A DNA stretch of 64,000 bases from Bolinopsis microptera. Its lineage: Eukaryota; Ctenophora; Tentaculata; Lobata; Bolinopsidae. Of this stretch, positions 1 to 39,600 are shown in pieces; position 1 is the first letter of the stretch; the number at the start of each line of letters is the position of its first letter. The stretch lies in NCBI RefSeq assembly GCF_026151205.1, contig NC_087082.1:17639401-17703400 (forward strand), read 5' to 3'. The translations under genes were made by a program, and so were the position numbers. Below the pieces are notes generated by a model, which ran no database searches, was not told where the DNA came from, and saw nothing but the letters and a program-made list of their open reading frames with translations.

Positions 1-623
1 AAGTATTTACACAAAGTATTTACACAAACCAATTCAAATCATGGCCCACTGCCAATCCAGCATTGTGTTTCCCTATTTCACTCAACATGAGTAATTCGCC
101 CAATTCGTTTTCCTACTTGAATCACCACATTTCACCCCACCCCAGGCTCATTGACCATGTCTGATGCTTCACTTCTCGACTACAAGATGTCGGATGGAGT
201 GTTAGTCGAGGCTCTCTCACTCACAGGTCTCTCAAATATTCTGTTAATCATGTTTTCTTCGCCTTGTGGGTGCTACCTCAGCTCGGCTGTACTTTCACAG
301 CATTCCGTACTATTGTCAGCACTTGAGGTCACTCAATAAATTTTGCAAGGGAATCTTGCCCGTCTTGTGAAACTGAGAGGTAGCACCCTTTCAGACGTTA
401 AAAATCACTTAGAATGTCTTCAATCATAACTTATTTAAAATTAAATTAAAACTGTTTTATACGACTGGGCTTTAATCCTAGATCAAATTCCGCCTGTCAT
501 TCCAAAGGAAGGCCTTTTCATTGAGCCGAGTAATATACCAGGTGCGTGTTTTCAGCCCTGAGATTGAAATCTTTTAATTTGAATCCACGATATTTAACCG
601 TGATTATATGTCCTGATTTCTAG
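1..623. other. Upstream region / 5' UTR of NACA
   Basis: No convincing coding sequence. A 62-codon open frame at 151-339 has no recognisable motifs or splice context. A polypyrimidine tract and AG (gatttctag) lie directly before the NACA start codon at 624, which suggests an intron in the 5' untranslated region whose first exon lies upstream. Confidence 0.5.
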
Positions 624-4082
<3,459 letters not shown>

Positions 4083-15600: not shown

Positions 15601-18600
15601 AACTTTAAACTTACTTGCTGGACAACAAACGCAGCCACGTCGTAATTCTCACAATAACTGCTGTGTAGAAGAGCTGGCAGGATGAGAGAAGGAAAAGAGC
15701 GCAGAGCTTCAGGATAGCTTTACAAATAAGAGGACCAGTAAATAAAATTGTCACAAGTGTTTCTCTCATTCACTTTCGATAAGACACAATGAAAATTCTT
15801 ACTTAACCATACGATTCGGAATTTTTCAACCGTTGAAGAATATCGGGCATTTTTCAGAATTTGGCCGCCAAATTTTGTTAAAGGCCTAACTTAAAATTCT
15901 AATACAAAACTTAAGGTCATGAGGCGATTCTACGTCGATTCTGAAAATTTCATGAAAAAATATTGAAACCCTATTGAGTTCTATTGTTTTGAGCGAAGTC
16001 AGTTTTGCAAATATCGCGAACTGATATATGGGCGATTTTGTTCATTTTTTGCAACTATTTGAACACAGAATCCACAGTTAGGTAGATATTGAGCTGATAA
16101 TCATAGAGAATGTGTAGTATAGGCTTACCTTCCATATAAAGTTGGTTTCATTCAAAAATATTGATATTTGACCAATTTATGGGCCAAAATCGATCAAATT
16201 TGGTGCGTATGCCCAAATATGGTCATATGGTTTTTGGCTCATAACTCAGTCATTTTTTGTCCAATCTTGATGAAAATTCATATACGAGTTCAGGGGACCA
16301 CTAGCTACAAAAAGAGCACCTAAAATTTGGGTTTTGGGCATGTTAAGGGTATTTGGCTAAATTGGGCCTGATTTGGACCAAATATGGGCGTGGCTGCCCC
16401 GCGGGCACCGTTTGGCGGTTGGGGTCCGGGACCCCCTCAAAAGTTCGGTCACCGGTCCTAGTTTGTTGGTTAACTGACTGCTATCTCGAAACTAAGTTTC
16501 ACAAAAAATCAGGGTGAACCCCCCCCCCCCCTTAAGGCATAAGGAAGCATTGTTGAGTTCTGAAACCAAGTTTAATCGATTTCTCGTGCAATTTTAGGTT
16601 AGGAGTGATCATCAAAATAAATTTTGAACAAAGTCGATATTTTGGTAAATTTCTAGCTTTCTGTCAGAAAATAAATCTTCATTCTATTAGGGGTAATTGG
16701 ATGTAACTACAGTACAGCTGTACTTACACCCACTTTCACAAGCATGCAAGCTCACCTGGTCCAAAGAGCGGGAAACGGAGAACGAGCTCTGGTGACGTCA
16801 TAGTCACGTGACCTCAGGCTCATAATCACGTGACCTCAGACCCAATCAATTGGGTTCTGGCCTGTTCAGCCCCCTGTCACCCGATCTTGAGGTGACGTAC
16901 GACAACTCGTTAACCCGATCGATGTCTGGAGGGCTGCAAATTTTCACATGCCAAACTCACAACGGTTTTTCGGAGTTGTGCGAGATGAAGACACATAGAG
17001 GCCGCAGAATTATGAGGACTACCAGATCCTGGTGGAACCTAAGCGATCCATGATATCACGACAGGCCCTAGTGGAACAGGAATGTAAAAACACGAGATTA
17101 GATCAGGAATATGAGTTAAGTTAGATTGGTAAGTCTCGGATACTTTCAAAGAAAAAGTATCATAGACTTAAAACGTATTATAGACTTAATTAAGTCACTG
17201 TGACGTTCGAGCACATAGATGTGATAGGTGCTTTGTTTTACACAGCGGAGAAAGATGTGTAGCATTATCTCGCCGAATATTTGCAGTTAATATAATTATT
17301 TTCTGAAATGTTTACAAATTTTTCAGGGGCATACCCAATACCCATTTACTCCACTGCCTTTTAGACTCTTAAAACACTTTGAGAAGTTGTTTGTAATTGA
17401 AATGTATTGAAACAAGAATCTTCAAATTCAAATATATATCCTAAGATTTACACACCTAAAATCCAAAAATGTATCCTTAACAAGAAACAATTACTATTTT
17501 TAATGGTCTTGCCCACTCTTAATTAAACTAGACGAAAATAATCTCATACTCAAACTTTAAAATTCCAGAAATACCAACATTCCAATGTCTCACAGCACAA
17601 GCCAGTACCAACATTCCAATATCTCACAGCACAAGCCAGTACGAGGTATGAACTGGGGAGGAGCTGCCATATCTAACGCTACCTGGTCAGGTCCCAAACT
17701 GTGTGACCTTCTCAACCACCTCGGCTGGGATGAGGAGAAGTACCCTGCTGTCAAACACGTCTGGGCTGACGGTTCGTACATTTAATTAGCTTTTAATTAG
17801 CTTTAATTAGCTTTTAACTAGCTTTTAAAATGTTTAGTTTCAATTTGACTTCATAGTATTTACACTTTTCAGTTTTGTGATATAGATATAGATTAATTTA
17901 TATTTCTGTTAAATATTAACTGCTGTTAATTAAATTTACGATCTTCATACGCCACTTTTGATGTGTAACAACAGTTTTAAAGTAAAAAAACGTCTAAGAC
18001 TTTCTCAAATCATAGGATTCCATAATTATAACGACATTCACAAAAATAACAACAACCAGTTAAGTGTCCACTTAAAACCAAATTATAAAAAGTGGCATTT
18101 TCTGTTTCATTTTAAATCATGTGAAATGCCTTCTGCCGAACAAGCAGTTTCTTAACTTCCTAAGAGTTCCTCTGATATACTTCATGTCTTATTTTTCACC
18201 TGAAATAACATACATAGATTCTTCATGATTGAACTAAAATATATCTTAAATGTTATTGGATTTTTACTCGGCAGAGTGAATAAAGCCCTCTCAGTAAAAA
18301 TTAAGTCCGTCCAAATTATAAATATAGAACAAAAATACCAAACTTACAAGACAAAACTCAATTTCTACCTACCTTATATTATAAGGAATCGATTAGCTGT
18401 AAATCTTTTTATCTGCCCCTCCAATTGTCTCCTCTTTGTATAGAGTATTCATCTGGAGTATCGTACAGACCCTCCACATCGTCATCCCAATCCTCTGTAT
18501 CCTTGTTACCCTCTTCAGCAACACTAGAAATGAGGTTCAGAGACGCCAGAGAGTGTAGCTGCAAGTGGTTGCTGTACGTTTTCTGGAGTTGGTTCTTCTG

Positions 18601-21600
18601 GGGTTGCAATTGAGTGCTGTACGTTTTCTCTAGTTTTTTCTTCTGAGGTTGGAGTTGAGTGCTGTATGTCATCTCTAGTTCTTTCTTATGGGGTTGGAGT
18701 TGAGTGCTGTAAGTCATCTCTAGTTCCTTCTTCTGGGGTTGGTTGTTAGCTAATTTATATATTGGAACATCCTCATCAGGTCCATTAGACTCAATTTGTA
18801 CAGAGAAGCGTTTGTTAAGCGCTGCTTTAAGTGCACCCGCATTTAAGTGAGTCTGCATTTTGGATAGGAGCTCCAAGTGAACACTCTTTCTCTTGTCACC
18901 TTGAGATAGGTTCTGTTCGGATGAAGAAGGTAGGTTGATTGGTTTGTTGTTACTTTGTCGCCTTTTTATGGGCTCCTCAGCTGTCACTAAGAACATTCTT
19001 CCTTGGAACTCTGTTATGTCATCATAGTGGCCTTGACTAAATCTCTCTTCTTCTTCTTCTTTATTTTGAGGTATGGGGATTTTATGCAGGAGAGAATAAG
19101 TCTCTTCCTCTTCTTCTTCATGGTTTCCTGACGAGCTGTTCTTTCTATCAACAGTATCATACATGGGTTCTAACTCTATCCGAGGGCGAGGGGTGACAGG
19201 GGGTTGTTTCTTCTTGTGACCACTACCAGTGCTGAAACGTCTATCCAGCCTAGCATAACTGTACTCAAACTCCTCGTCATCTTCTCTCTGGGTCTCTTCA
19301 TCACCTTCTCCCTGGCTCTCCTCGTCAATCTTGCTACCTTCATCAACTGACATGTTAATCTCGTCATAGAACGGATCAAGTCCGGGTGGTTCCTCTGAAG
19401 TAGACGGTGCAGACTCGCGAGGCTGTAGTCCCAGATGGAGGATCTCTGGTTTCTTCCGGACGGGTGCTTCCTCCGGGGGGATGTCTCCAGGGTTGGAGAG
19501 CAGTCTCTTCATCCGCTGGTAAGAGGATACTATCCCCTTTTTCATCGATAAGACGAACCCGAAACTGCTTAATAGATGCCTGTTCTTTTAATAGATGCGT
19601 TAGGACGGATTGTCTTTCTATCAAGTATGTTGCCTATCACCAGAAGCGATCATCCCAATAATACCTATCACTGTGATGGTTTGAAATCGCAAATAAAACA
19701 GAACGCTACTAATATGGCAACTCCACAATAAAATGTACAAAGAAAAGAACACGTGTACCTATACTACTGAAGATCAAGGGAAGGTACAGAGAAAGTACAA
19801 TCAGTCGGGATCAGGGTTTCATGTTATCTACTCAACGGATTATTTCGTAACATAACTTTGTTCTGATGCTGAGTGGCCGAGTGAATCATCAATACACCCT
19901 TCTAACTTCAAACACGTTACTTGTTGTCAAAAACAAAAGTTGTTATAGATATTATATAAAATGTGATTTGTATATAAAAAGATATTGTAAGTCTCGTGAA
20001 ACTGAAAGGTGAAGCAATCTGCAATTCTAATACAACCTTTCGTATCAGCTATATGTTTCCATAAATTCACTAGCCTTCAGTTTGATATAATATATTTGCT
20101 TATTGGCTGATTTAACATTGTACGACATGGTCCAAGTTTTAAATGTTAGATTATAATTTTTAAGATCCACCTTCTACGGCACACTGTGCCGGGCACAGTT
20201 CCACTTGGCCAGAATTAAAGATGTGATTTTTTGCAAATCGTTTTTCCTGTACAACCCAAAGTAATCAAAATTGATTATAGAAGGTTTTAAGAGGATAAAA
20301 CTTTCATCATCGGTTTTTTAGAATGTCACAACAAGTTACAAGCTTATTAATTTTCAAGAATTATTTTAACAAACAATAGATAACAATAATATGATGTACG
20401 ATACTTGTGACACTCATTAATAATCCAAATCTCAGATAACTAAGAATTAGTCATTTAAAAAAAAATCAAAAACAAAAAAGTCAAGCAGTCTCTCTAATTA
20501 ATGATTATTACAAAATTTCTTGCACGATTTGACGTAAAAAATATCGAAGAAATAAAATAATTAGCAGGCTCTAAAACTGATCAATATGTCTACTTTAATC
20601 TGTATGATTAATTAGATTAATTATTAGTATAATAGATATATTAGCATTAATATACGAAATTATCAAAAATAACGCTCAAACGTTCACTATTACTATATAA
20701 ACTCGAACATATCGTTTTTAGCCGTCAAATGTGTGTTTATTTATAAAGCTAAAACTTGTTACAGGAATAAACCATTACAGGAATAAACCATTACATATCA
20801 AAATCAGTAGTATAGGTAGCAAATCACAAAGATAAATGTTAGTTTGTAAAGGCTTCTTTCTTTCCGAAATTAAATCTGATATAAACCGTCCTTATCATCC
20901 GCATCTTCTTCTAAGATCTATCACTCCGTGTCAGATGGGTTCCTGGAATTATTATCGAAATTATGGAAATTATTCTTTCTGTTCATGACTCTTATAAGCT
21001 TCATACTTATGTCCAAAGACCAACATGTTTAATTGTAGTGAAGTTGTAAACATTAACAGTCCCCTAGTAAAAACATGCTAAATTTATAACCGCGATATTA
21101 TACAAGTCCTACCTCAGTCCCAAGTTCATCTTGAAGCAAATACCCCCATCCTCCCCTGCTTCAAGTTCCTTATCTACCAGTGCTGTTCCTCTTATCACCG
21201 TCAACTCATCTGGTATTTCGTACGGATCCTCCTCACTGCTTTCCTCCTCACTGCTTTCCTCCTCTGGAGTGTTGTCAGGACCTCCACTTCTGTTCAATAC
21301 AGAGTAGCAGTCTTCTTCAGATGGTGTTTTATCTGAACTGGAGTTGATGTGGTTTATCATATTGTACTCCTCATCAGCAGTATCCCTGAAATGTTACAGA
21401 GTTAAAGTTGTTGTTTAGGCTTTAGAACATTGACAATCCTGAATGGATCATCCAGATCTGACATCGCCGCATTAAAGTGATAATTCTACTAAATTTATAA
21501 AACTTAATTGATCTCCCACCTCAGTTCATCTGGAACTTCGTAGATCTTATCTTCACTCCTCAGTGTCTCTGTCTCCTCAGAGTCTCCAATCACAGCGAGC

Positions 21601-24600
21601 TCGTCTGGCACTTGGTACGGATCTTCAACATCCTCACTAACACTTAGCTCCAGAGGTTTGGTGATACGTTTTGATAGGGTCTCCAGCTCTAGATGGGTAC
21701 TATATCTTTGCAGGTTGGAGCAGGTATTCATTGTGGTGTGGTACCGTGGAGCATCTTCTCCTTGTGCAGTTAAACTGATACTTTTATTGTATGGGGGGTT
21801 TGTCAGGTTTTGAACTGATTGCTTGTTCTGGTTGAGCTCTAAAATGCAACTGTTCCGCTTTTTCGATGCCTCCCTTATGTTTCTTTTACGCAGATCTTCT
21901 TTTTCACTTGACATTTTGTTTCCGTGCAGCAGCGAATAATTATTTTCCTCGTTCTCCATGTCAATTATGGCTGCACCCTGGCTTTGCTCGATTGTACTGT
22001 ACTCCCCACTAATTTCAGTACTGGATTGCCCTACGAGAAACTTCAGATTATGAGAAGGTTGCTGGATCGAAGTCTGGTTCAACTGTAGTGTACAACTATA
22101 AGTGGAAAGATCTCCCAAAGATCTTTGTGTAGCCGGTTCAGGATTCCTCAACATTCCATCATCATTTCCAGCTCCACATTGTTTCACTTTGTGTACGACA
22201 ATGTTACTTTGTGCTGCATGAGAATTAATCATTCCTTTGAGCTCTGTCAGATCATCATAATGGCTGTCACTATCTTCATCATCAATCAGATTGCTTGGTT
22301 TAGTGTTCTGAAGAGTGTTCTGAAGAGTGATGACGTCTGAAAAGTTAGCATCCTCTGGGCATGGTGGTTCACTGATCCTAGTCTCAACAACACAGATTGT
22401 GTCGTACGTACCATCTGCTTCAAGATCAGTCTTTGGAGGTGCAGATGGCTCCGATCCCTTGCAACTGCTTGCTTTTTCTAGAATTGTGTCATGGTTAGCT
22501 GGTTTGTATTTATTGTACTGATTGTTTTGGTGCTTTGAAGGATTCTTTATACTAGCTATATCATCATACATATCGTCAGTTTCTGCGTCAGAATATGACT
22601 CAGCAGCTTTTTCTTTACTCTGAAAATGTACACTAATTTTCTTGTCATCTTCAGTGCAAGGAAACGTCTCTTTGACTGTGCAGCGTTTTTGTACTTTATT
22701 CTTTACGATTATAAGCACTATAACAGCAGCGACTAATGCAGATACCGATATTCCTATTACGATCTTCCATTTTTTGGGTCTTTTATCATCCTGGTGACTA
22801 GCATTAGCAATTAATGGATTTACCATATTATTTGATAAAGCCATGTCTGACGAAACTGCCCCTTTCGTATCTTTACCTGTCGTATTCTCTGCTGTTGTGC
22901 TCTTTTCTGTCGCATTTTCTGCTGTTGTGTTCTTTTCTGTCGCATTTTCTGCTGTTGTGCTCTTTTCTGTCGTATTCTCTGCTGTTGTGCTCTTTTCTGT
23001 CGTATTCTCTGCTGTAGTGCTCTTTTCTGTCGTATTCTCTGCTGTTGTGCTCTTTTCTGTCGTATTCTCTGCTGTTGTGCTCTTTTCTGTCGTATTCTCT
23101 GCTGTTGTGCTCTTTTCTGTCGTATTCTCTGCTGTTGTGCTCTTTTCTGTCGCATTTTCTGCTGTTGTGCTCTTTTCTGTCGCATTCCATGCTGTAGTGC
23201 TCTTTTCTGTCGTATTTTCTGCTGTTGCGATCCTATCTGTCGTATTATTTCCAATACATTCGAGTCGGTGATTTATCTCTTTACGGAGGTTCTGATAAAT
23301 GTTCCAATCTTCATTGTACACGTCCCACGCGTTCTTCTCATTTCTTTGCAATGCAATGATCGCACGATTCCCAAAGTCATAATTAGACTTGCACTTTTCA
23401 TCTGTTAGCTGAAGGAATGCCTGAACAAACTCCCTTTGTATTATCATCCAGTCTACCTGAACACCTATCATGGCTCTGATACTTCTGTCATTTGACGTTA
23501 CGTCCAGTTGTTGCAGATTTATTATTTTGTTTAATTCCTTTTCAAGCTGATCCGCCATTACGTTATCTGATAAGAGTGTTTCAACTTTCTTTACGATGTT
23601 CTTCTGATCTTCAATCATCTCATTTGCTCTCAACCTCAAAGTGTTCTTTCTGTCGGTAGCAATAACGAGCTGACCACTACCACCATCTTTTGATCCACCA
23701 TTATCTTTTCGTTCATAGCTCTCAGTCACTATTACTAAAACTAAAAACCACAAAAATGGACAACTCATACGAAACAAAATCAAAGCCCGGATAAAAATTA
23801 GCGCGCCTCGGCCTCAATTAACCTTGAAGGTAGAACTGCTTCCGTAAAAGAAAGACGTGTAAATGTGTAAAGGTACTTTACTACTGAACCTTTCCCTAGT
23901 ATTTCATTTATAAAAGTATTGAACATGTTGTACTTATCAACTCATCGTCAAATTTCGATCCTGCGAGTTAATATGTTACTTGTTACCAACTCCTCAACGT
24001 AAGTTCGATATATTATTATTATTAAAGCATTTGGCCCAGTCAAAAACGTTTCAGTTGTATATCTTTTACGGTTTTTGCGGAAAGTCGCGTTAAAGTTGAT
24101 GCCGTTGTGTCAGTAAAGGGGTACGGAACCCTCCATATTTATCGTCTCGCTTTATATATAGTAAGATAGTAAGATTATTAAATACCTTGTATAGAAAATA
24201 TAAAGTGTTCAGACTGTGAGTCTGTGGTTCAGTATTTGACTACTGAGTCAGGTTCATATTATTTGTTCTTTGTTCACAGATCTGAGAAGCGCAGTGATCC
24301 GAGACACACTGCTTTTGATAACTGCACTCAAAATAGGACAAAGGTATAAGAAGACTTTTTTTTTGAGAACAAAAGATGAGAATGAAATAATTTCTTTGAA
24401 ATAAAATGGCAATCACAAATTGTGATTCACAAATTGTGATTCACAATTATACAATCACCTCTAAAATAGTGGAAGACAATAGATATTCGTTGCACGAGCA
24501 GAGTTTCATTTTGAAAGTTCAGATAAAACATTCCCACACGACACATTAATAAACAATTAAAATGCTAATTCATACGTAATAATTCATATTTCCTGCCCTA

Positions 24601-27600
24601 ACTCAAATCAATAAAAGTGATCTAACAAAAAATTCTCTACATTGTCCCTTGTTACAGAAACATATTTCAACGTTCAACTTTACGTAAGTTGTTGAGAATG
24701 CAATGGAGTGCTGTTTGCTCACTTTTTTAGTGTAATAGATACACACTCACAGATTAGATTTCACCTGAAACATGATTATAATATTTCATTATTTTGTGAT
24801 TAAATCATATCCATTAGGCCGACGATTAATTACACAGATCTCACTCTGATATAAAAACCTAAGTTTAAAACATATTTCACAGCTGGGCAATTCGCGATTC
24901 CTCATTTGTATTGTCCTAACTTACCTCCAAGTTAAGTTTTAGCTCCCCCTAGCTTCTCAATTCTTCCTCTATTTGGTATTGATCTTCAGCACCCTCTCCT
25001 TCACCTAAAGCGTCACCGTTACCGTCTGTTGTATCCCAGTCTAGCCCTAACAATACTGTTGTCATCATGTTCCGAGTAGATTGTTTCGTCAGGGTCTGAT
25101 TCAAGTCCAGATTGCTGCTGTATATTGAAGATCCTTCTTTGGGTGGCGTGTCACTCTTTATCAGATTAATTTCCCCTCTTTCATCCAGGTCGGTATCTTT
25201 AGTTACAATCTTTTTCTTGTCTGAATCCTCAGTAACTGCCTCCTCGCTTAAATAAAGTTTATGATCTGGACTAGATGTGCTGCACTTTTCCTCCGATGTG
25301 CTGCACTTTTCCTCAGATGTGCTGCACTTTTCCTCAAATGTGCTGCACTTTTCCTCAGATGTGCTGCACTTTTCCTCAGATGTGCTGCACTTTTCCTCAG
25401 ATGTGCTGTTTTGGTGCTTTGAAGGATTCTTCATACTAGCTATGTCATCATATTCATACATATCAGACTCGGTTTCATCGTCAGAATATGACTCAGCAGC
25501 TTTTTCTTTACTTGGACAATGTACGTCTATTTTCTTGTCAGCTACGCTGATTGACATGCTTGTGATGTAATCGTTTCGGTTCTCTGACTTTTTCATGGAA
25601 TCGTCAATGGTTATTGGATCGCTCTTACTGTTTTTCGGATCTTCAGTGCAAGGCAACGTCTCTTTGACAGTGAAGCGTTTCTGTGTTTTAATCTTAACGA
25701 TTATAAACACTATAACAGCAGCAATTAATACAGATACCGATATTCCTATTACGATCTTCAATTTTTTGGACCTTCTTTCATCTTTAAGATCTTGACGACT
25801 AGCATTATTTATCACTTGCAGTGCATTTACGCTTCCCATCTCTGTCGGAGCCATATGTACTGTATCGTTTTCTGTTCTATCCATTCCTTGTAAATTCTCG
25901 ACATGTTTGCTATCCGGATATTGTTCTTTAACACAGTTATGGTTTAAACGATGTTTTATCTCTTTGCGAAGGTTCTGATAGATTTTCCATCTTTTTTCAT
26001 ACACGTTCCAAGGGTTCTCATTTGGCGATGAAATGAAATCTGTATTCTCAAAGTCATTAGACTTGCACTTTTCATCTGTTAGCTCAAGGAATGCCTGAAC
26101 AACCTCCCGTTGTATTATCATCCAGTCTACCTGAACACCTATCATGGCTCTGATACTTCTGTCATTTGACGTTATGTTCGGTTGGTGCAGATTCTTTATT
26201 TTGTCTAATTCCTTTTCAAGCTGATTTTCCATTACGTTATCTGATAAGAGTGTTTCAACTTTCTTTACGGTGTTCTTCTGATCTTCAATCATCTCATTTG
26301 CTCTCAACCTCAAAGTGTTCCTTTTAATATCGAGCTGACTACTAACATTATCTTTTCGTTCATAGCTCTCAGTCACTATTACTAAAGCAAAAAACCACAA
26401 AAGTGTTCTACTCATACGAAACGAAATCAAAGCTCGGATAAAAATTAGCGCTCCTCAATTTATGTTGAAGGTACAACTGCTTCCATAAAAGAAAGACGTG
26501 CAAATGTGTAAAGATTCGTTACTACTGAACCTTTACCTAGTATTTCATTTATAAAAGTATTGAACATGCTGTACTTATCGTTAAATTTCGATCTTGCGAG
26601 TTAATATGTTACTTGTTACTAAATTCTCAACGTAAGTTCGATATAATAACTTACCCATCTTAATTAGAAGCTCAGTAGATAGTGCTACATATGAGGGATC
26701 CTCTTGCGCAATATGAATTCCCCCTCAGCATGTTAGTGGCTTATTGCTACTATTAAGTAGTAATAGCACATTGTGTAGAAAATATAAAGTGTTCAGACTG
26801 TGAGTCTGTGGTTCAGTATTTAACTACTGAGTCAGGTTCATATTATTTGTTCTTTGTTCACAGAACTAAGGAGCGCAGTGATCCGAGACACACTGCTTTT
26901 GATAACTGCACTAAAGATAGGACAAAGGTATAAGAAGATTTGAGAACAAAAAATGAGAATGAAATAATTTCTTTGAAATAATAATGGCAATCATTACATA
27001 GAATCATCTCTAAAACAATTAAATGCTCTATGGATATTCGTTACACGAGCGGAGATAAATCGTTTCCATATTATAATCAACAATCTAATTTTTTCTTCAT
27101 ACTGCAAGTTTTTATATCTGCCCTGACGCAAATCGATAAATGTGATCCAACAAAAAATTCTTTACATTGTCCCTTGTTACAGAAACATATTTCAACGTTC
27201 AACTTTTCGTAAGTTGTTGAGAATGCAAAGGAGTGCTGTTTGCTCACTTCTTTATGGTAATAGATACACACAGAGATTACATGCTGATTTTGGCCTGAAA
27301 CATAGTTTTGACATTCATTATTTGTGATTAAATCATTATATCCATTAGGTCGACGATTAATTACACAGATCTCACTCTGATATAAAAACCTAAGTTTGAA
27401 ACGTAGTTCACAGCTCTGCAATTCGCAATTCCTCATTTGTATTGTCTTTACTTACCTCCAAGTGAAGTTTTAGCCTCCCCTAGCTTCTCAATTCTCCCTC
27501 GATTTGGTATTGATCTTCAGCACCCTCTCCTTCACCTAAATCGTCACGGTTACCGTCTGTTGTATCACAGTCTAGCCCAGAGTCTGTTTCTAACAATACT

Positions 27601-30600
27601 GTCGTCATCATGTTCCGAGTAGGTTGGTTCATCAGGGTCTGATTCAAGTCCAGATTGCAACTGTATCTTTTGCTGATCGGTCTCTCTTTAGGTGGTCTTT
27701 TTATCATAAGCGTGTTTAGTGCTCCTTTTTCTAGATCTTTCTCCGTGGATTTGCTGCTCCTGTTTAAGACAGTGTAGCTTCCCTCCGCATAGTCACCATT
27801 AGCTGCTGCTTCACTTGACTCTAGCTTTACTTTATCAATCGTGCTGTTATGGATAGAAGTCATGTTCCGAGTAGGTTGGTTCGTCAGGGTCTGATTCAAG
27901 TCCAGATTACTGCTGTATATTGAAGATCCTTCTTTGGGTGGCGTGTCACTCTTTATCAGATTAATTTCCCCTCTTCTATCCAGGTCAGTATCTTTAGGTA
28001 CAATCTTTTTCTTGTCTGACTCCTCAGTAACTGCTTCCTCGCTTAAATCAAGTTTATCTTGACTAGATGTGCTGCACTTTTCCTCAGATGTGCTGTACTT
28101 TTCCTCAAATGTGCTGCACTTTCCTTCAGATGTGCTGCACTTTTCCTCAGATGTGCTACACTTTTCCTCAGATGTGCTGCACTTTTCCTCAGATGTGCTG
28201 CACTTTTCCTCAGATGTGCTGCACTTTTCCTCAGATGTGCTGCACTTTTCCTCAGATGTGCTGCACTTTTCCTCAGATGTGCTGCACTTTTCCTCAGATG
28301 TGCTGTACTTTTCCTCAGATGTGCTGCACTTTTCCTCAGATGTGCTGCACTTTTCCTCAGATGTGCTGTACTTTTCCTCAGATGTGCTGCACTTTTCCTC
28401 AGATGTGCTGCACTTTTCCTCAGATGTGCTGCACTTTTCCTCAGATGTGCTGTACTTTTCGTCAGATGTGCTGTTTTGGTGCTTTGAAGGATTCTTCAAA
28501 CTAGCTATGTCATCATATTCATACATATCGGACTTGGTTTCATCGTCAGAATATGTTTCAGCAGCTTTTTCTTTACTCGGACAATGTACGTCTATTTTCT
28601 TGTCAGCTACGCTGATTGACATGCTCGTGATGTAATGGTTTCGGTTCTCTGACTTTTTCATGGATTCGTCTATGGTTACTGGATTTTCCCTACTATTTTT
28701 CGGATTTTCAGTGCAAGGAAACGTCTCTTTGACAGTGCAGCGTTTCTGCGCTTTAATCTTAACGATTATAAACACTATAACAGCAGCAATTAATGCAGAT
28801 ACCGATATTCCTATTACGATCTTCAATTTTTTGGACCTTCTTTCATCTTTAAGATCTTGACGACTAGCATTATTTATCACTTGCAGTGAATCTACGATTT
28901 CCATCTCTGTGGGAGCCATCTGTACTGTATCGTTTTCTGTTCTATCCATTCCTTGTAAATTCTCGACATGTTTGCTATCCGGATATTGTTCTTTAACACA
29001 TTTATAGTTTAAACGATGTTTTATCTCTTTGCGAAGGTTCTGATAGATTTTCCATCTTTTTTCATACACGTTCCAAGGGTTCTCATTTGGCGATGGAATG
29101 AAATCTATATTCTCAAAGTCATTAGACTTACACTCATCTGTTAGCTCAAGGAATGCCTGAACAACCTCCCTTTGTCTTATCATCCAGTCTACCTGAACAC
29201 CTATCATGGCTCTGATACTTCTGTCATTTGACGTTACGTCCAGTTGTTGCAGATTCTTTATTTTGTCTAATTCCTTTTCAAGCTGATTCGCCATTACGTT
29301 ATCTGATAAGAGTGTTTCAACTTTCGTTACAATGTTCTTCTGATCTCCAATCATCTCATTTGCTCTCAACCTCAAAGTGTTCCTTGCGATATCGAGCTGA
29401 CCACTACCATTATCTTCTCGTTCATAGCTCTCAGTCACTATTACTAAAGCAAAAAACCACAAAAGTGTACTACTCATACGAAACGAAATCAAAGCCCGGA
29501 TAAAAATTATCGTTCCTCAGTTAACGTTGAAGGTACAACTGCTTCCGTAAAATAAAGACGTGTAAATGTGTAAAGGTACGTTACTGCTGAACCTTTACCT
29601 AGTATTTCATTTATAAAAGTATTGAACATGCTGTACTTATCGTTAAATTTCGATCTTGCGAGTTAATATGTTACTTGTTACTAAATTCTCAAGGTAAGTT
29701 CGATATAATTAGTTACACATCTTAACTAGAAGCTCAGTAGATAGTGCTACATATGAGGGAGTCTCTTGCGCAATATGAATTCCCCAGCATGTTAGTGAAT
29801 AGTGGCTTATTACTACTATTAGAAAATACCTCGTGTAGAAAATGTAAATTGTTCAGACTGTCAGTCTGTGGTTCAGTATTTAACTACTGAGTAAGGTTTA
29901 TATTATTTGTATGTTCTTTGTTCACAGAACTGAGAAGCGCAGTGATCCGAGACACACTGCTTTTGATAACTGCACTCAAAATAGGACAAAGGTATAAGAC
30001 AATTTGAGAACAAAAAATGAGAATGAAATAATTTCTTTGAAATAATAATGGCAATCATAGAATCATCTCTAAAACAATTAAATACTCTATGGATATTCGT
30101 TACACGAGCGGAGATAAATCGTTCCCGTATTATAATCAACAATCTAATTTTTTCTTCATACTGCAAGTTTTTATTTCTGCCCTGACACAAATCGATAAAT
30201 GTGATCCAACAAAAATTTCTCTACATTGTCCCTTGTTACAGAAACATATTTCAACATTCAACTTTTCGTAAGTTGTTGAGAATGCAAAGGAGTGCTGTTT
30301 GCTCACTTCTTTATCGTAATAGATACACACAGAGATTACATGCTGATTTTTGCCTGAAACATGATTTTGACATTCATTATTTTGTGATTAAATCATTATA
30401 TCCATTAGGTCGACGATTATTTACACAGATCTCACTCTGATATAAAAACCTAAGTTTGAAACATATTTCACAGCTCTGCAATTCGCAATTCTTCATTTGT
30501 ATTGTCCTTACTTACCTCCAACTCTCCAAGTGAAGTTGTAGCCTCCCCCTAGCTTCTCAATTCTCCCTCTATTTGGTATTGATCTTCAGCACCCTCTCCT

Positions 30601-33600
30601 TCACCTAAAGCGTCACTGTTACTGTCTGTTGTATCATAGTCTAGTCCAGAGTCTGTTTCTAGCAAAACTGTCGTCATCATGTTCCGAGTAGGTTGGTTCG
30701 TCAGGGTCTGATTCAAGTCCAGATTGCAACTGTATCTTTTGCTGATCGGTCTCTCTTTAGGCGGTCGTTTTATCATAAGCGTGTTTAATACTCCTTTTTT
30801 TAGATCTTTCTCTGTGGATTTGCTGTTCCTGTTTAAGACAGTGTAGCTTCCCTCCGCACAGTCATCATTAGCTGCTGCTTCACTTGACTCTAGCTTTACT
30901 TTATCAATCGTGCTGTACTCTTCCACGAGGATCTCCTCGATAGAAGTCATGTTCCGAGTAGGTTGGTTCGTCAGGGTCTGATTCAAGTCCAGATTACTGC
31001 TGTATATTGAAGATCCTTCTTTGGGTGGCGTGTCACTCGTTATCAGATTCATTTCCCCTGTTTTATCCAGGTCGGTATCTTTAGGTACAATCCTGTTCTT
31101 GTCTGACTCCTCAGTAACTGCTTCCTCGCTTAAATCAAGTTTATCTTGACTAGATGTGCTGCACTTTTCCTCAGATGTGCTGCACTTTTCCTCAGATGTG
31201 CTGCACTTTTCCTCAGATGTGCTGCACTTTTCCTCAAATGTGCTGTACTTTTCCTCAGATGTGCTGCAATTTTCCTCAGATGTGCTGCACTTTTCCTCAG
31301 ATGTGCTGCACTTTTCCTCAAATGTGCTGCACTTTTCCTCAGATGTGTTGCACTTTTCCTCAAATGTGTTGTCATCTTTGTCTGCAACAGAGGTCTTTGT
31401 TGATCCCTGCTTAGGTTGTAATTTCACTATAGCTAGATGACAGCTGTATTGTGTTTCTAGCGGCCTCTCTTCCTCCCCTTTTAAGTCAGTATCTACTTTC
31501 GAATAATTTGTATCTTCTTTCTTTAGATCTTGATCTTTGTCAGCTTGTATTTTGTGTAGGTTCCTCTGATGTTCTAAGATTTTGAGAGGGGTTTTGGGAT
31601 AGATTTCATCGTAGAGAGGTTCTCCCTCCTCGTTATCTTCAGAAATCCAGACTTCATATTTTCTGAGAGGAGAAGTTGATGATTTTTTGTCTAGTCGCTG
31701 TATCAAGGTTTGGTTCAGATCTACATTGCAACTGTATTGTCTTTCCAGTCCGGGTCTTTCTTTTGATTGTCTGGTTAGGTCCAGTCTGGTTGTTGCAAAT
31801 GTCGAGTACCTTCCATCTTCTTCCTTATCAACTGATCCTAATGCGCCTCTTTGCTTGGCTTTACTAATTGTGTCATACTCACAGTTAGTTTCATCCGCTG
31901 GTACGACAGTATTTCTGTCCACGGGTATGACTGTTGTATAAGTGTAACTCACTTTACTGCTACATGGTTTGTGAAGGACACAACAGTTTCCTTCCTCATC
32001 TGTTGCCTGATCTTTGTTGGACAGAGTATTGCACTGTAAATCACTTCCATTTTTTCCGCCAGTTTTAGGAGGTTCTTTAATGTCTAGTTCTTCGTAGAGA
32101 GGACACTCTTCATCTTCTTTGGCATTTTGCTTTGCATTTTCAACAGACACTACATTTTTAAAGTTAACTTTCTTCGTTGGGGGTCTTTTGCCTTTGTTAC
32201 GGCTCCCAGACGACGCATCTCCTACTCCAGTAGGTTCTGCACTGGGTGCCGCTGATTTAGGTGGAACACTTTGATGACGAGAGGACCGTTTGACTATGTT
32301 TATGTGATACCTTGATCTCAGGATAAAGTAAAGAGCGAGAGACAATAATATGAAGATGGTCAATGTGGTCACTGAGGTTGCCATTATTATTGGTAATTTG
32401 TCTGTCGAAACTGAAGATGATGCGTTGTGATCCCTTTCTTCTGCCATGTTGCTTGCATCTCCATCACAGATGATCTCATTCAGTTTCAGCACGTTTGCTG
32501 TGAACTGAAGATAGAAGTTCCAACATTTCTCATAATCGGTCCATGGAAAATTCGGTGTATCATCTTTACAATCTTTGAAGTCACTGTCATTGAGGTAGTT
32601 CTGGCTGATATTGAGATAAAGAACATTTTCAACTGTACGATGTTGATAGATCATCCAGTCTACGTGCTTTTTCATCACAGCGACCAAATTTCTTTTGTCG
32701 GAATTTTTTATTGTCTGTATTTTTGCCCTCATTTCCTCCCTTTTATTTATTAAAATGCGCAAGGTGCTATTTTGCTCGTCTATCAAAGCTGCCCAAGCAA
32801 TTATCTTATTTTGGATGCCTAATATCTCTTCTGTCCTGTCGATGAGAGCACCTTTACCATTGTCTAAAGAAGAAGCAAAACTCACCAGCACCACTAAAAG
32901 CAAGGCCACAACAAACATTCGGTTACAATTACACATATTTACGAAACGTATACGGAGTAGCTCGAACTGCTTCCTCTGCCCCGACTGAGAGTTATGTTGT
33001 AATGTTGGTCACTCAGCTCATTATACAGTTTGACTTGCTGTACCCTGCTTAGTTCAACAGAGTTATACACATGAAGTGACATCATTATAGTGGTTTACTG
33101 GTATCCTACTCATTTACTACTAACTCTGTGATTCTGTAGTAAACTACGTGACGGTACGATGACACCCTGACTGCTGACATTAGCAGCTTTAGATTGTAGT
33201 GTGGTATTCTTCTGTTTCTGGATGTCACTGCGTTTACTATTGTTTAATAACAGCGAGAGGGTATAAACTGGGTGTAAAGTGAATTGTATGGAAATTGGAA
33301 ATCGGGATATTCAGAATACGGTATCAAAACTTGGCCAAAGAGTGTGATATATATTGAATTTTTAGTAAGAATCTCGTATGTCAATGACACTTGATAATTT
33401 GTAAAGTTCTAAGCTGAAAAAAGCTGAATAGTCAATTGTTATATTGATTGAGCCTGTCAATAGAATGCACGGAGTAAATTTTTGAATACCTATTTTAAAG
33501 AATTTTTAACAATTTAGGTAGTGTTCGTAATTTCCTTGTTATTTGTGATACTTTTATAGAAGAAATGATAGGAACAAAGTTAGGCAAAACTGTAAAAATC

Positions 33601-36600
33601 ATTTAAAAACATCCAAAATTCAATCCATTTAATTATTTATCACACAAGCGAAATAATACTATAATACGAAGTATGGCATCAGATTTATAAAAAGTAAGCA
33701 CACGATACTGTCTTTAATGATTGACATTCTCTATCAAATATCTGTTCCTATCTCAATCAAATCAAAAAAATATATGATTTACATCGTCCCTTTTTAATTA
33801 TGCATAGCAAAACTTCAATTTCCAAATTGTTGTAGGTTTATTGGGATTCAAATGAGTGCTGTTTGCTTTCTTCTGTATAGTAATCAACTCGCAGATCCGA
33901 TTTTGATATTCGCCTGAAACATGAACGGTTCATTACTATGTGATCAAATTTCAAACTTAAATTTCAACTGATTTATGAACTTATCTACTGAAGTTCCAAA
34001 CAAATTTTACACTCTAGTCTCCACTCAAACAATGTTGATGATTGTTACTGATTCAAATTATCCCTACTTACCTTCTGTTAAACTCTGACATAACTTCTGC
34101 TCAATTCGTCTGGTCTCCAGCACCCTCCTCCTCAATTAAAGCGTCACCGTCTGTTGTATCACAGTCTAGTCCGGTGTCTGTTTCTAGCAAAACTCTCGTT
34201 ATCATGTTCAAAGTAGGTTGGTTCGTCAGGGTCTGATTCAAGTCCAGATTGCAACTGTATCTTTTGCTGATCGGTCTCTCTTTAGGCGGTCGTGTTATCA
34301 TAAGCGTGTTAAGTACTCCTGTTTCTATATCTTTCTCTGTGGATTTACTGTTCCTGTTTAAGACTGCGTAGCTTCCCTCCGCATAGTCACCATTAGCTGC
34401 TGCTTCACTTGACTCTAGCTTTACTTTATCAATCGTGCTGTACTCTTCCACGAGGATCTCCTCTATAGAAGTCCTCATCAATTCTTGGTCAGGTTGCAGT
34501 TTCAAGGTGTGGTTCAGTGCTAGATTACAAGTGTATTGTGTTTCTAGTGGTTTCTTGTCTGCTATTAATATTCCAGTCTCGTTCATTAATGATAGACTAG
34601 ACTGTCCTACTTCTAATTCTCCCTTCTCATCCACAGCACTACCACCTTCTTCAGTCAGACAGAATGTGTCGTACTCTCCCTCAATCTCCCTCCCCTCTTC
34701 TGGTGCTACTTCTTCAGCCAGGCAGAACGTGTCGTACTCTCCCTCCTCCTCCTCTGCAGGCTGATCTTCGTGAGCTAGAGTGTTGTACACATTGCTCTGA
34801 TCTTGTTTGGGAGGTTCTTTGAGGCACATTTCGTCGTAGAGAGGATCCTCTTCTTGGTCATGGGTGTAATCAACTGTGTTGGTTAATGGTCCTGTCTTCT
34901 GACTTCCGCTCGCTATCCCTTCAACTCCAGTAGGTTCTGTTTCTCTTTTAGCAGAAAGACTTTTGAGCCGAAAAGATCGTCTGACTATGCGGTATCTTGA
35001 TCTCATGATGAGGTAGAGGGCGAGAGAGGCTATGAGGATGAGAAATACGGGAACGGAGATTCCCAGTATGATAACTAATGATTTATCAAATATATTATCT
35101 GTCGAATCATCTTCTGAGCTATCTTCGTCGTCCTCATCGTTTGAATCATTTTCATCGTCACTATCCTCTGTTTCACTGTCATCTGTTCCATTTTTATCAT
35201 TCATTTGCTCGAGTTGCGAGATACAGCAGCTCTGATAATAATCCCAATATGTAACGTATGTAGACCACATATCTTGGCTCCATTTCGATAAATCAGAGGG
35301 AAGTTCAGCCAAAACCTTCTGATAGCAAGTTGAAATATTGCTACTATGATTTTGTGAAAGATTTTCTATATGTTGGCACTGTTCTTTCATATATCCTTGG
35401 TGATCCAACATAATCTCTCCTGCCCTTCTTAGCTGCCTTATCTGGGTTCCACCTATGAGATATCCATTATCCAGATATATCTTTGTAGCCCCTATCTTAG
35501 TCCTTGATGTGTAGATTCCACTGTTCATGTCTTTTTCTTTTGTAAGGTAGATTAAATTGTCTTGTGCCAAAATCATCTCTTTTGAATTTATCTTTAATAC
35601 ATCTTTTGCATCATCAAAGGTTATTACTGCCGATCGACCGATAATTGTCTCAGCTGCAATTACCATAATTATAAACAAGAAGTTTATAAGCATTTCGTAA
35701 TACTAACACTGTAACCAGCAAACAAACAGAGAAAGTGCAATGTAACGTATTCCAACATGCTATCCTTTTTACTCATCTCACAGTTCAGTTTGGGATCACA
35801 TGGTGTCTACCTGGTTACTCCGACAACACTGCACCCTGATGTACTAACCCTGGTGTATTTATACTTCTCAATACATGACACGTTGTGTGGGCAGTATTGT
35901 TAGTGATTACTCACGTTGTTATGGTGATGTGTTACTCACTCACGTTGTTATGTAATCTACTTCAGCATTACTTCATCTGATTGCAGGTAACTGTGTTACG
36001 TGGGGTGTACACTGTTTTGTATTATGAACACTGATAGTAATTATTATATTTTTCGGTTGATTTGTAATTTAAGATGTACAGGTACCAAGCACTAAGTCGG
36101 AAATAAAACAGGCATTTTTCAAATTCAAATGTAATCAACCTACTGCTTGAGTATTCACAAATAAAATATTTCTCATCTAAATTGGGACGGGAAATATCGG
36201 GAATGTAAGATTTAAATTGGTCAGTGCTAATGTTGATTTGCCTTGCGTGCCCAGTTATAATGCAGTTATTAAATTGAAATTAGAATCGTTATTGATATCT
36301 AGAGAAACCGCAATATTTCATTATTGCTCCCTCAAATGTAATGTAAATTAATATAAATTGCTACAATCATGTATAAATAATAGGTACACAAAACAATCTT
36401 TTGGAATTTCATCAGTTCTTTTCATACGTAAATCAAGGAAAATTAAGAACTGTCTCTTGAACACATGATAATTTCTACATGAGAGTTAATACTCTAATAC
36501 TCTAATAATACTCTAATGTTTGTAGAGCTAAAAAGAGCTTCTTCTCGTATTATGTTGTTGATTTGCACTGATAGAGTGTTGCATCAGTCACAGCCGTTCA

Positions 36601-39600
36601 TCTGGAAGAAAGATCGTCTTACTACGCGATATCTTGATCTCATGATAAAGTAAAGAGTTAGAGACGTTACGAGGATGAAACATATCGGAACGGAGATTCC
36701 AAGTATCATTGATAATTTATCTGATTTTGGCCCTTTATCCGTATCACGGATATAATCTTTGAGCTCTGTTTCTTTGAAATGAAGATACAGATCCCAACTC
36801 TTATCATAGTTGATCCAGGTACCTTGCTCATCTGTTATCTTATCTCTGAAGTTCTGCCATTTCTCAGCATATCTCAGATACATATCCCTGTCCTGATCCC
36901 CTGATATGTTTTTGATGTGATCATTTTGATGTATCATCCAAAGTATTTGCTTCTTCATCGCGATTCTGATAAAGGAATTGTTGGTTCTATCGTTATTGGC
37001 TCCCTCAATCATCTTCGCCATTTCATCTCCCTTTGATCTTAGTTGGTTCAAATTGATCCTCGATGCATCCAACATTTTCTTTTGGATATCCAAGATTTCT
37101 TCCGTCCTGTTGACGAGTGTTTCTTTAGCATTTTCTAAAGAAATAGAACTAAAAACATATCTACAGACTGAAATTCTCGCCAGAACCACAAATAGAAAGC
37201 TTAGAACTAACATCCAGTTTCAACTAGTAGACACACATACAATACTCGAATACAATACGGTATAACAAGAACTACCCTATCTTTAGACTAAAGACTAATG
37301 ATGTAATCTTACTGTTATACAGTGTAACACCCCTGTTTTCAGTACTTTCAAATTAAATCACACCCAGGTTTAGATTACGGACCAGATGGAACTAGCTACG
37401 GTGCTTCAATCCTGATAGAAAAGGCCATGGATCCCAGACAAGATGTTATACTTGCTCTAAAAATGAACGGTGAGAACCTGTTAATGTACACTTAATACCC
37501 ATGTATACGAAGTAGTGGGTATAGTGTGAAGGTAGACTAATCCATATTCATATTTTACCAACACAGTTATGTAACCCAGGAAGATACAACGTGTCTATTT
37601 AGTATAATTACTAATCATATTTTAATTAACTAATTAATTGGTTTTACAGGAGAGGAGCTGCCACGAGACCACGGTTACCCAGTCAGACTGGTAGCCCCGG
37701 GAGTGGTGGGAGCTCGTAACGTGAAGTGGGTAGGCAGTATTACTCTGAGTGAGGTGGAGAGTTTTAGTCACTGGCAGAGGAGAGACTACAAGGGTGGGTA
37801 ATGAGTGTAGTGTTGGTAAAGGTGTAGTAAAGGTGTAGTAAAGGTGTAGTAAAGGTGTAGTAAAGGTGTAGTGTTGGTAAAGGTGTAGTAAAGGTGTAGT
37901 AAAGGTGTAGTGTTGGTAAAGGTGTAGTAAAGGTGTAGTAAAGGTGTAGTGTTGGTAAAGGTGTAGTAAAGGTGTAGTGTTGGTAAAGGTGTAGTAAAGG
38001 TAAAGGTGTAGTAAAGGTGTAGTAAAGGTGTAGTAAAGGTGTAGTAAAGGTGTAGTAAAGGTGTAGTAAAGGTGTAGTAAAGGTGTAGTAAAGGTGTAGT
38101 AAAGGTGTAGTGTTGGTAAAGGTGTAGTAAATGTGTAGTATTGGTAAAGGTGTAGTAAGGTGTAGTGTTGGTTAAGGTGTAGTAAAGGTGTAGTAAAGTG
38201 TAGTAAGGTGTAGTAAGGGTGTAGTAAAGGTGTAGTAAAGGTGTAGTAAAGGTGTAGTAAAGGTGTAGTAAAGGTGTAGTAAAGGTGTAGTGTTGGTAAA
38301 GGTGTAGTAAATGTGTAGTTTAGTAAGGTTGTAGTGTTGGTAAAGGTGTTTGTAGTAAGGTGTAGTGTTGGTAAAGGTGTAGTAAAGGTGTAGTAAAGGT
38401 GTAGTAAAGGTGTAGTGTTGGTAAAGGTGTAGTCAAGGTGTAGTAAAGGTGTAGTAAAGGTGTAGTAAAGGTGTAGTATTGGTAAAGGTGTAGTAAAGGT
38501 GTAGTAAAGGTGTAGTATTGGTAAAGGTGTAGTAAAGGTGTAGTAAAGGTGTAGTGTTGGTAAAGGTGTAGTAAAGGTGTAGTAAAGGTGTAGCATTGGT
38601 GTAGTATTGGTAAAGGTGTAGTAAAGGTGTAGTAAAGGTGTAGTGTTGGTAAAGGTGTAGTAAAGGTGTAGTAAAGGTGTAGCATTGGTTAAGGTGTAGT
38701 AAGGTGTAGTGTTGGTTAAGGTGTAGTAAAGGTGTAGTAAAGGTGTAGTAAAGGTGTAGTAAGGGTGTAGTAAAGGTGTAGTAAAGGTGTAGTATTGGTA
38801 AAGGTGTAGTAAGGTGTAGTGTTGGTTAAGGTGTAGTAAGTATTACATTGATAGACAGTTGTATACAGGTGTGTTACAATTGTAAAAACTGCAGCTGTGT
38901 GTTTGGTAAGGTTGAGTGCATTGTTGAGTTAAAGGTGTAGTCTATTTGGTAAATTCGTAATAGGTTGTATTTTCGTGTTAATTGTTGTATAAAGTGTTAT
39001 AAGTTTAGTAAGTTGTAGTAACATGTTAGTATTGGAAAGTGTAGTATAAAGGTTAATAGTATTGGTTAGTTATAATAGGTAGTAGTACAGGTTAAGTAAA
39101 AGTTGTAGTAAAAGGTTGTGTTATGTAAAGTGTAGTGAATGTTGTAGTTAAAGGTGTAGTATTGGTAAAGGAGTAGATGAAGTGTTAGTGATTGTTAAGG
39201 TGTTAGTAAAGGTGTAGTAAAGGTGTAGTAAGGTGTAGTAAAGGTGTAGTAAGGGTTGTAGTAAAGGTGTAGTAAGGGTGTAGTAAAGGTGTAGTAAAGG
39301 TGTAGTGTTGGTAAAGGTGTAGTGAATGTGTAGTAAAGGTGTAGTATTGGTAAAGGTGTAGTAAGGTGTAGTGTTGGTTAAGGTGTAGTAAAGGTGTAGT
39401 AAAGGTGTAGTAAAGGTGCAGTAAAGGTGTAGTAAAAGTGTAGTAAGGTGTAGTGTTGGTAAAGGTGTGTAGTAAAGGTGTGGAGTCTGGTGGGGAGGTG
39501 AGTCATATTGTTATTCTTGACACGTGATAGTGATTCTGGAGTTGATTGATTTATAGCTGTCACGTAAGTAATAATAATATACCTCATCTCTCCACCAGAA

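What the first reader, a model, noticed from the sequence alone, without database searches (positions are those of the whole stretch)
18409..37213. Previously unrecognised receptor-like gene cluster nested in one SUOX intron
Six tandem antisense genes (C, D, E, F, G, H) in a single 19.6-kb intron share signal peptide, small helical ectodomain with WMIxQ and WxxYxxxW landmarks, one membrane span and (except H) a long tail rich in YxxI/L motifs. Gene A adds a related tail without an ectodomain. I know no named family with this ectodomain. Tandem array, divergent ectodomains and a tail-less member resemble immune or allorecognition receptor loci. Architecture is seen in sequence; function is inference.
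Basis: partly seen in the sequence, partly recalled or inferred. Interest (0 to 1): 0.88.

Follow-up and report, generated by a model that had tools for sequence, protein, structure and literature searches.

The report
Comb-jelly receptor cluster inside another gene
On the opposite strand inside one intron of a metabolic gene of a comb jelly lies a small cluster of receptor-like genes whose inner tails have been copied between members while their outer parts diverged, and none of the libraries searched recognises the family.

Summary
The intron is window 17772-37367 (19,596 bp) of SUOX, and the antisense ORFs are real and mostly related. The genome is a ctenophore, probably Bolinopsis microptera (inferred; Mnemiopsis not excluded). 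No Pfam, NCBIfam or PDB-sequence family fits. The ectodomain is predicted helical, at low confidence. Single-sequence searches found no convincing second locus.

C-G would then lie inside its 17.1-kb intron, itself inside SUOX. (2) Tails are copied between members while ectodomains are saturated: F/E tail dS 0.08, ectodomain not estimable. A 3-kb tandem duplication ends in a 21-bp coding tail repeat, and a ~360-bp tail island links G and F. (3) Frames are conserved: 9 of 9 coding gaps are multiples of 3, against 4 of 22 intergenic.

Most likely these are single-pass receptors signalling through tyrosine-phosphorylated tails. An immune or self-recognition role is plausible but unproven: ectodomain omega is below 1, no ITAM was found, no transcripts were available, and G's ectodomain is not demonstrably related.

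The parts
17772..37367 (+). Host intron of SUOX (sulfite oxidase), 19,596 bp
   Evidence: PF00174 exon matches at 17588-17776 and 37373-37501, splice sites read; later SUOX exons with PF03404 at 50534 and 52782
36584..37213 (-). H: leader, ectodomain, TM; proposed exon 1 (37213-36623) of a two-exon gene H-A, donor at 36622
18409..19587 (-). A: long tyrosine-motif tail; proposed exon 2 (from 19515) of H-A; donor at 18372 after its stop
   Evidence: tail related to C+B (0 of 300 shuffles reach the score)
19516..36622 (-). Proposed 17,107-bp intron of H-A in which G, F, E, D and C lie (same strand)
   Evidence: model, not shown by transcripts
34101..35693 (-). G: leader, ectodomain (family membership weak), acidic stalk, TM, long tail
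30549..32936 (-). F: leader, ectodomain closest to H, TM, longest tail, with 21-bp repeat array
27480..29477 (-). E: leader, ectodomain, TM, tail with the longest 21-bp repeat array
24949..26415 (-). D: closest paralogue of E (ectodomain 89% identical), short tail
21504..23768 (-). C: leader, ectodomain, 12-copy N-glycosylation/Thr-rich stalk, TM, tail; donor 21519
21113..21385 (-). B: proposed second coding exon of C (134-bp intron, phase 2); adds YNMI, YSVL and YEIPDEL
   Evidence: acceptor 21385 7.6 bits, donor 21519 7.3 bits; joined frame open
31152..31368 (-). 21-bp repeat (EEKCSTS heptads), 10.3 copies, in F tail
28065..28473 (-). 21-bp repeat, 19.5 copies, in E tail
25273..25408 (-). 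21-bp repeat, 6.5 copies, in D tail
28338..31371 (-). Tandem duplication block, copy 1: F tail from its repeat, intergenic, E up to its repeat
   Evidence: 93.2% over 3,051 columns to 25273-28284
25273..28284 (-). Tandem duplication block, copy 2: E tail from its repeat, intergenic, D up to its repeat
34111..34473 (-). G tail island shared with F (30580-30948), 91% identical
   Evidence: per-50-column flanks 40-64% upstream, 43-57% just downstream, 66-80% further down
22877..23246 (-). 30-bp repeat coding the [10 protein letters not shown] stalk of C, 12.3 copies

Best explanation
A small family of type I single-pass cell-surface receptors (six genes by my model: H-A, G, F, E, D, C-B). Shown in sequence: hydrophobic leader, ectodomain, TM and long tail; tail pieces shared between members; ectodomains diverged far beyond those tail pieces; a tandem duplication with both ends in the tail repeat and a conversion-like tail island. 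Inferred: the ectodomain (predicted mostly helical, low confidence) meets a partner at the cell surface; clustering exposes the tails to a tyrosine kinase; phosphorylated Y-D-x-I/L, Y-S-x-L/I and Y-x-[VIT]-P-D-E sites then dock SH2 adaptors. Recombination in the array keeps one signalling tail common while ectodomains change, the logic of a recognition-receptor array. H and A are most likely exons of one gene in whose intron the others lie, so the array would be doubly nested.
For: Architecture. Real coding: 9 of 9 gaps in four coding comparisons are multiples of 3, against 4 of 22 in two intergenic ones; summed omega 0.62, P 0.007. Family. Tail/ectodomain decoupling: F/E tail dS 0.078, TM dS 2.6, ectodomain dS not estimable; G/F tail dS 0.078. 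Duplication block; G/F island. Yxx[ILVMF] above shuffled tails in A, C+B, F, G (P 0.038, 0.029, 0.006, 0.0008). A and C+B tails related (z 6.0, 0 of 300 shuffles). SH2 readers exist in the genome (33 exon-level matches, some on contigs that look like duplicates of each other). H-A: donor 36622 and acceptor 19515 both phase 0, product 565 aa; sites of this strength have densities 0.0029 and 0.0031 per base of the intron; no donor over 4 bits in about 100 bases after H's stop, whereas D, E, F, G and A have one of 10.0-12.6 bits 24-36 nt after theirs (C has none after its stop either, only its internal one).
Against: No transcripts, so neither expression nor any splice is shown. Yxx[ILVMF] is not enriched in D (P 0.74), E (0.46) or C without B (0.12). 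A's tail is only weakly related to G (4 of 300 shuffles reach the score) and F (1 of 300). No ITAM spacing in any ORF. Ectodomain omega below 1 in all three comparable pairs (core 0.55-0.77, whole 0.64-0.78). Tail sharing is not uniform: G/E dS 0.20, F/D C-terminus 0.24. G's ectodomain is not demonstrably related. H's donor is poor at positions -3 to -1 (4.9 bits), and stronger acceptors lie upstream of A (8.7 bits). Fold models are poor: pLDDT 63 and 50.
Confidence: 0.6

Rival explanations
1. Innate immune or self/non-self recognition receptors: ectodomains bind microbial or conspecific ligands, tails signal through SH2 proteins. (A more specific form of the best explanation.)
For: Clustered paralogues with divergent ectodomains and shared tails; relaxed but sub-neutral omega 0.55-0.77 in C/D/E cores. 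A published survey of ctenophore immune receptors was limited to 20 Pfam domains (PMC11797021, part 1 of 2 of section 6), so it could not have seen a family without one.
Against: No ITAM spacing; no positive selection detected; only six genes; no polymorphism data. I recall a report that fused Mnemiopsis individuals integrate readily, arguing against strong allorecognition; my search for it found nothing, and the papers listed for ctenophore plus allorecognition (20 held, 15 listed; 5) were not read.
Confidence: 0.35
2. Gamete-surface recognition or adhesion proteins: fast-diverging helical ectodomains act at fertilisation.
For: Helical ectodomain prediction (low confidence) and strong ectodomain divergence.
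Against: Long tails with conserved tyrosine motifs point to signalling rather than simple adhesion; no direct evidence.
Confidence: 0.12
3. H is a genuine tail-less paired receptor and A an independent cytosolic protein carrying the same kind of docking tail.
For: Both ORFs are open with an in-frame ATG each; better-scoring acceptors (8.7 bits) lie upstream of A at 19766 and 20001, which could serve a separate first exon or a trans-spliced leader (leaders are on 56% of Hormiphora Iso-Seq reads, PMC8527503, passages).
Against: H has a phase-matched donor that C, D, E and G lack at the homologous place (F has one of 4.0 bits in phase 2), and none over 4 bits after its stop; A has a phase-matched acceptor.
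Confidence: 0.3
4. Protocadherin-like cluster: first exons C-H are each spliced to shared downstream exons B and A.
For: Donors at or near the ends of all members; same-strand array with the tail exon last.
Against: D, E, F and G stop 24-33 nt before their donors, so A would be untranslated; B's donor joined to A's acceptor at 19515 meets a stop after two residues.
Confidence: 0.08

Closest known systems
Hydractinia Alr allorecognition complex
   Same: Clustered, diverse receptor family in an early-branching animal (41 members in the complex; passages of the review PMC11999971)
   Different: [quoted passage not shown] here no Ig or other Pfam domain, six genes by my model, one intron
Vertebrate paired receptors with ITIM/ITAM tails (KIR, LILR type; recalled)
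   Same: Homologous ectodomains, tails with tyrosine motifs, exchange of sequence within arrays
   Different: No Ig or C-type lectin domain, no ITAM spacing; the apparent tail-less member is probably an exon
Nested intronic genes of ctenophores
   Same: Hormiphora has 2,357 nested genes in 1,654 hosts, 484 of them doubly nested (PMC8527503, passages)
   Different: The passages I saw do not describe a paralogous receptor array filling one intron
Clustered protocadherins (recalled)
   Same: Tandem large exons with ectodomain and TM, tails kept alike
   Different: D-G each carry their own stop codon before their donor

Membership tests
ITAM/ITIM immunoreceptors | Ig-like or C-type lectin ectodomain | tested here: not met
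   No family over its cut-off in Pfam for 7 full ORFs; none for the first of 6 ectodomains and only weak families (best E 0.028) among the 6
ITAM/ITIM immunoreceptors | ITAM spacing YxxI/L(6-12)YxxI/L | tested here: not met
   0 of 8 ORFs
ITAM/ITIM immunoreceptors | Strict ITIM [SIVL]xYxx[ILV] in the tail | tested here: inconclusive
   One distal site in C (SHYDDL) and membrane-proximal SRYR[IV]V in G and H; matches in E and F lie in the ectodomain; none in A, B, D
Hydractinia-type Alr | V-set/I-set Ig domains | tested here: not met
Allorecognition locus | High population polymorphism that predicts fusion or rejection | not testable with these tools
   One genome; no second haplotype copy of the cluster among the matches
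Type I phosphotyrosine-signalling receptor | Leader, ectodomain, single TM, long tail | tested here: met
   C-G each by hydropathy; H-A only under the two-exon model
Type I phosphotyrosine-signalling receptor | Tyrosine docking motifs more frequent than composition predicts | tested here: inconclusive
   A, C+B, F, G yes; D, E, and C without B no for Yxx[ILVMF]; uncorrected
Clustered protocadherin-type constant exons | Variable exons spliced in frame to shared constant exons | tested here: not met
   Stops 24-33 nt before the donors of D, E, F, G; splicing itself not observed
Known helical-bundle families in PDB | Significant fold match | tested here: inconclusive
   Foldseek 0 hits at E<=0.001; best Z 11.6 (gp41-5 complex), within what the tool calls common for helical bundles; model pLDDT 63
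Nested intronic genes | Whole gene within one intron of a host gene | tested here: met
   ORFs inside 17772-37367; transcript ends not observed

The most novel reading that the evidence does not exclude
A recognition system built on a new helical ectodomain: a receptor array nested inside an intron of its own founder gene (H-A), itself inside SUOX. [quoted passage not shown]
Probability: 0.22. Interest if true: 0.85.

Novelty: new variant of a known kind. Interest (0 to 1): 0.6.

Why it matters
Surveys of early-animal immunity tend to look for known domains; the ctenophore survey I read in part used 20 Pfam domains (PMC11797021). A signalling receptor array with an unlisted ectodomain would be invisible to such a survey. 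If confirmed, it would give a concrete candidate for cell-surface recognition in ctenophores, a clean case of tail/ectodomain decoupling driven by a coding repeat, and an extreme case of genes nested in genes.

Tried and rejected
Pfam and NCBIfam scans of full ORFs: only weak or low-complexity matches, none over cut-off. PDB by sequence: one match, E 0.62. Fold search: Foldseek best E 0.24; the VIA-align rows are gp41-5 complexes, designed bundles, BAR domains and the like, so no fold is named. A second model led by H was worse, pLDDT 50, and was not searched. Genome search with full-length E gave 107 matches; those listed outside the cluster all fall at query 289-519, in or across the repeat part, so I discounted them as low complexity. 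G's TM and tail matched C1:23982111-23982254 (E 0.009); I fetched it. Neighbouring ORFs look Ig-like by eye and the similarity is confined to the TM region, so I took it as chance. Its ORF weakly matches the Pfam model Psg1 (E 0.0013, below cut-off), as H does (E 0.064), both over the TM; I took this as a TM effect. G's ectodomain matched C3:16622245 at E 1.7, not followed. Positive selection: no ectodomain pair has omega over 1; the D/E TM stretch gives 1.23 from 5 changes. Rfam at gathering score: nothing. Spliced leader: the few TTGAGGT-type strings in the window told nothing. Papers: no paper in the library held ctenophore with ITAM and SH2, ctenophore with immunoreceptor tyrosine or fused ctenophores with Mnemiopsis; the 10 of 17 papers listed show no such cluster by title. 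The listings were not read further. Of papers I saw: abstract, part 1 of 2 of section 6 and passages of PMC11797021; passages of PMC8527503, PMC10232365 and PMC11999971.
Full report
WHERE IT IS. The window lies in a 264.65-Mb genome of 232 contigs. A glutamate-receptor domain taken from it (L001) matches Mnemiopsis ML032222a at 116.6 bits and 4zdm (which I recall as Pleurobrachia) at 103 bits, but kainate receptor 2 at only 49.8 bits. So this is a ctenophore. The matches listed all lie on contigs C1-C13, and C1 is 26.2 Mb; higher-numbered contigs appear only with coordinates under 33 kb. I have not seen all contig lengths. The published Bolinopsis microptera assembly has 13 chromosome-scale scaffolds holding 97.23% of bases and a k-mer size of about 254 Mb (PMC10232365, passages); Mnemiopsis leidyi has 13 chromosomes and 247.97 Mb (PMC11797021, abstract). 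Bolinopsis is my inference and Mnemiopsis is not excluded.

THE HOST. SUOX exons on the + strand match PF00174 at window 11285-11407, 17588-17776, 37373-37501 and 37640-37774, and PF03404 at 50534-50653 and 52782-52904.

THE ANTISENSE GENES. Seven long ORFs and one short one lie on the - strand. C-H have a hydrophobic leader and one TM by hydropathy. The ectodomains of C and D are 77% and 89% identical to E; F, G and H are 23%, 16% and 23%. F against H gives E 5e-12 over the whole genome, F against E 9e-6, and profile C/D/E against F/H gives 97.2%. G is the weak case: 6.3% and 4.6%, and its ectodomain alone finds no other cluster member. It belongs by TM (70% identical to H, dS 0.51) and tail. 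Searches with single proteins found no convincing second locus; but G shows that such searches miss distant members, so 'single locus' is only as good as that.

ARE THEY REAL GENES. In four coding comparisons all 9 gaps are multiples of three, against 4 of 22 in two intergenic comparisons (by my arithmetic about 3.5e-5 by Fisher). Summed omega over the four comparisons is 0.62, P 0.007; singly only C/E is below 0.05 (0.025; D/E 0.13, F/E 0.14, G/F 0.49). Ectodomain cores: D/E 0.68, C/D 0.77, C/E 0.55. This is relaxed purifying selection, not positive selection.

GENE MODELS. D, E, F, G and A have a donor of 10.0-12.6 bits 24-36 nt after the stop (distances by my arithmetic). On the - strand of the whole intron 5 donors reach 10 bits, and 4 of them are those of D, E, F and G (A's falls just under); the fifth is in F's leader; the + strand has 1. 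So each of these genes appears to be one long coding exon plus a short intron and an untranslated exon. C has a donor at 21519 and an acceptor at 21385, in frame, adding exon B. H has no donor over 4 bits in about 100 bases after its stop, but one in its membrane-proximal tail (36622, 4.9 bits, phase 0), which C, D, E and G lack at that place (F has one of 4.0 bits in another phase). A has an acceptor near its start (19515, 5.4 bits, phase 0). Joined, they give a 565-aa receptor whose tail starts [14 protein letters not shown]. From the site densities, finding both in phase by chance is about 1 to 2% (my arithmetic, after the fact). The SUOX sites of the host intron itself score lower, 2.5 and 2.9 bits, so the weight tables, human-like and from memory, are rough. 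Against the model, stronger acceptors lie upstream of A (8.7 bits). If right, the 'tail-less' and 'ectodomain-less' members disappear as such and C-G lie inside the 17.1-kb H-A intron. Doubly nested genes are known in ctenophores: 484 in Hormiphora (PMC8527503, passages).

HOW THE ARRAY CHANGES. A 3,051-column block at 93.2% identity runs from F's tail repeat to E's tail repeat and matches E's repeat to D's repeat. Both ends are in the 21-bp repeat (F 10.3, E 19.5, D 6.5 copies). The intergenic parts agree: F-E against E-D 94.1%, E-D against D-C 82.6%. So part of the array grew by duplication with ends in the coding repeat, which joins a tail to whatever ectodomain lies upstream. Accordingly F and E share a tail at dS 0.078 while their TM has dS 2.6 and their ectodomains are saturated. 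G and F share a stretch at window 34473-34111 (91%) whose flanks drop to 40-64% upstream and 43-57% just downstream, rising to 66-80% in the proposed terminal exon; dS in it is 0.078, so this is not mere constraint on protein. I read it as gene conversion. Other tail pairs are less close: G/E dS 0.20, F/D C-terminus 0.24 over 35 codons.

THE TAILS. Yxx[ILVMF] against 5,000 shuffles per tail, with most heptad repeats cut out beforehand (this shortened D, E and F): A 6 against 2.7 (P 0.038), C+B 7 against 3.3 (0.029), F 8 against 3.2 (0.006), G 7 against 2.3 (0.0008), C without B 0.12, D 0.74, E 0.46. Yxx[IL] in the same order: 0.087, 0.0024, 0.039, 0.20, 0.023, 0.57, 0.27. Seven tails and two patterns were tested without correction. 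Tail relations by shuffled scores (shuffles reaching the score, of 300): A/C+B 0, C+B/G 0, C+B/F 1, A/F 1, A/G 4. A and C+B share YDT[IV], HYDD[IL]TE, YSLLH and YxxPDE sites. No ITAM spacing was found. I recall Y-D/E-x-I as a Src-type SH2 site and Y-x-x-P as a Crk-type site. The genome has 33 SH2 matches.

THE ECTODOMAIN. No Pfam family over cut-off, no PDB sequence. AlphaFold2 on six sequences gives four main helices after the leader at pLDDT 63, pTM 0.57; led by H, pLDDT 50, pTM 0.33. Fold matches are generic helical bundles. I make no claim of a new fold.

WHAT IT DOES. Shown: the architecture, family relations except for G's ectodomain, frame conservation, tail sharing. Inferred: surface location, phosphorylation, SH2 docking. 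Guessed: the ligand. The immune survey of ctenophores that I read in part (PMC11797021) used 20 Pfam domains and so could not have found a family without one. Recognition is my leading guess for the role (0.35), well short of shown.

Noticed in passing
window 40478-41434, - strand: Single-exon rhodopsin-type GPCR ORF (PF00001, E 2.3e-13), also antisense and inside the next SUOX intron (the following SUOX exon, [13 protein letters not shown] by eye, lies near 46556). SUOX seems to host more than one nested receptor gene.
   Followed up: partly
window 37816-39454: About 1.6 kb of degenerate 11/39-bp tandem repeats (GTAAAGGTGTA) with strong GC skew just after a SUOX exon.
   Followed up: no
window 32885, - strand: A strong donor-like site (10 bits or more) inside F's leader-coding region; possibly chance, possibly an alternative first exon.
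   Followed up: no
window 23769-24019, 26416-26666 and 29478-29728: The 250 bp upstream of C and of E are 90.3% and 93.2% identical to that of D, about as alike as the coding parts: perhaps shared promoters or untranslated leaders.
   Followed up: partly
L005 3757-4491 (C1 of the same genome): A TM and tail next to ORFs that look like Ig domains by eye; its TM resembles that of G at E 0.009. Probably an unrelated Ig receptor.
   Followed up: partly
window 1-3300: Looks by eye like a NAC-alpha gene with a 33-bp Pro/Glu-rich coding repeat.
   Followed up: no
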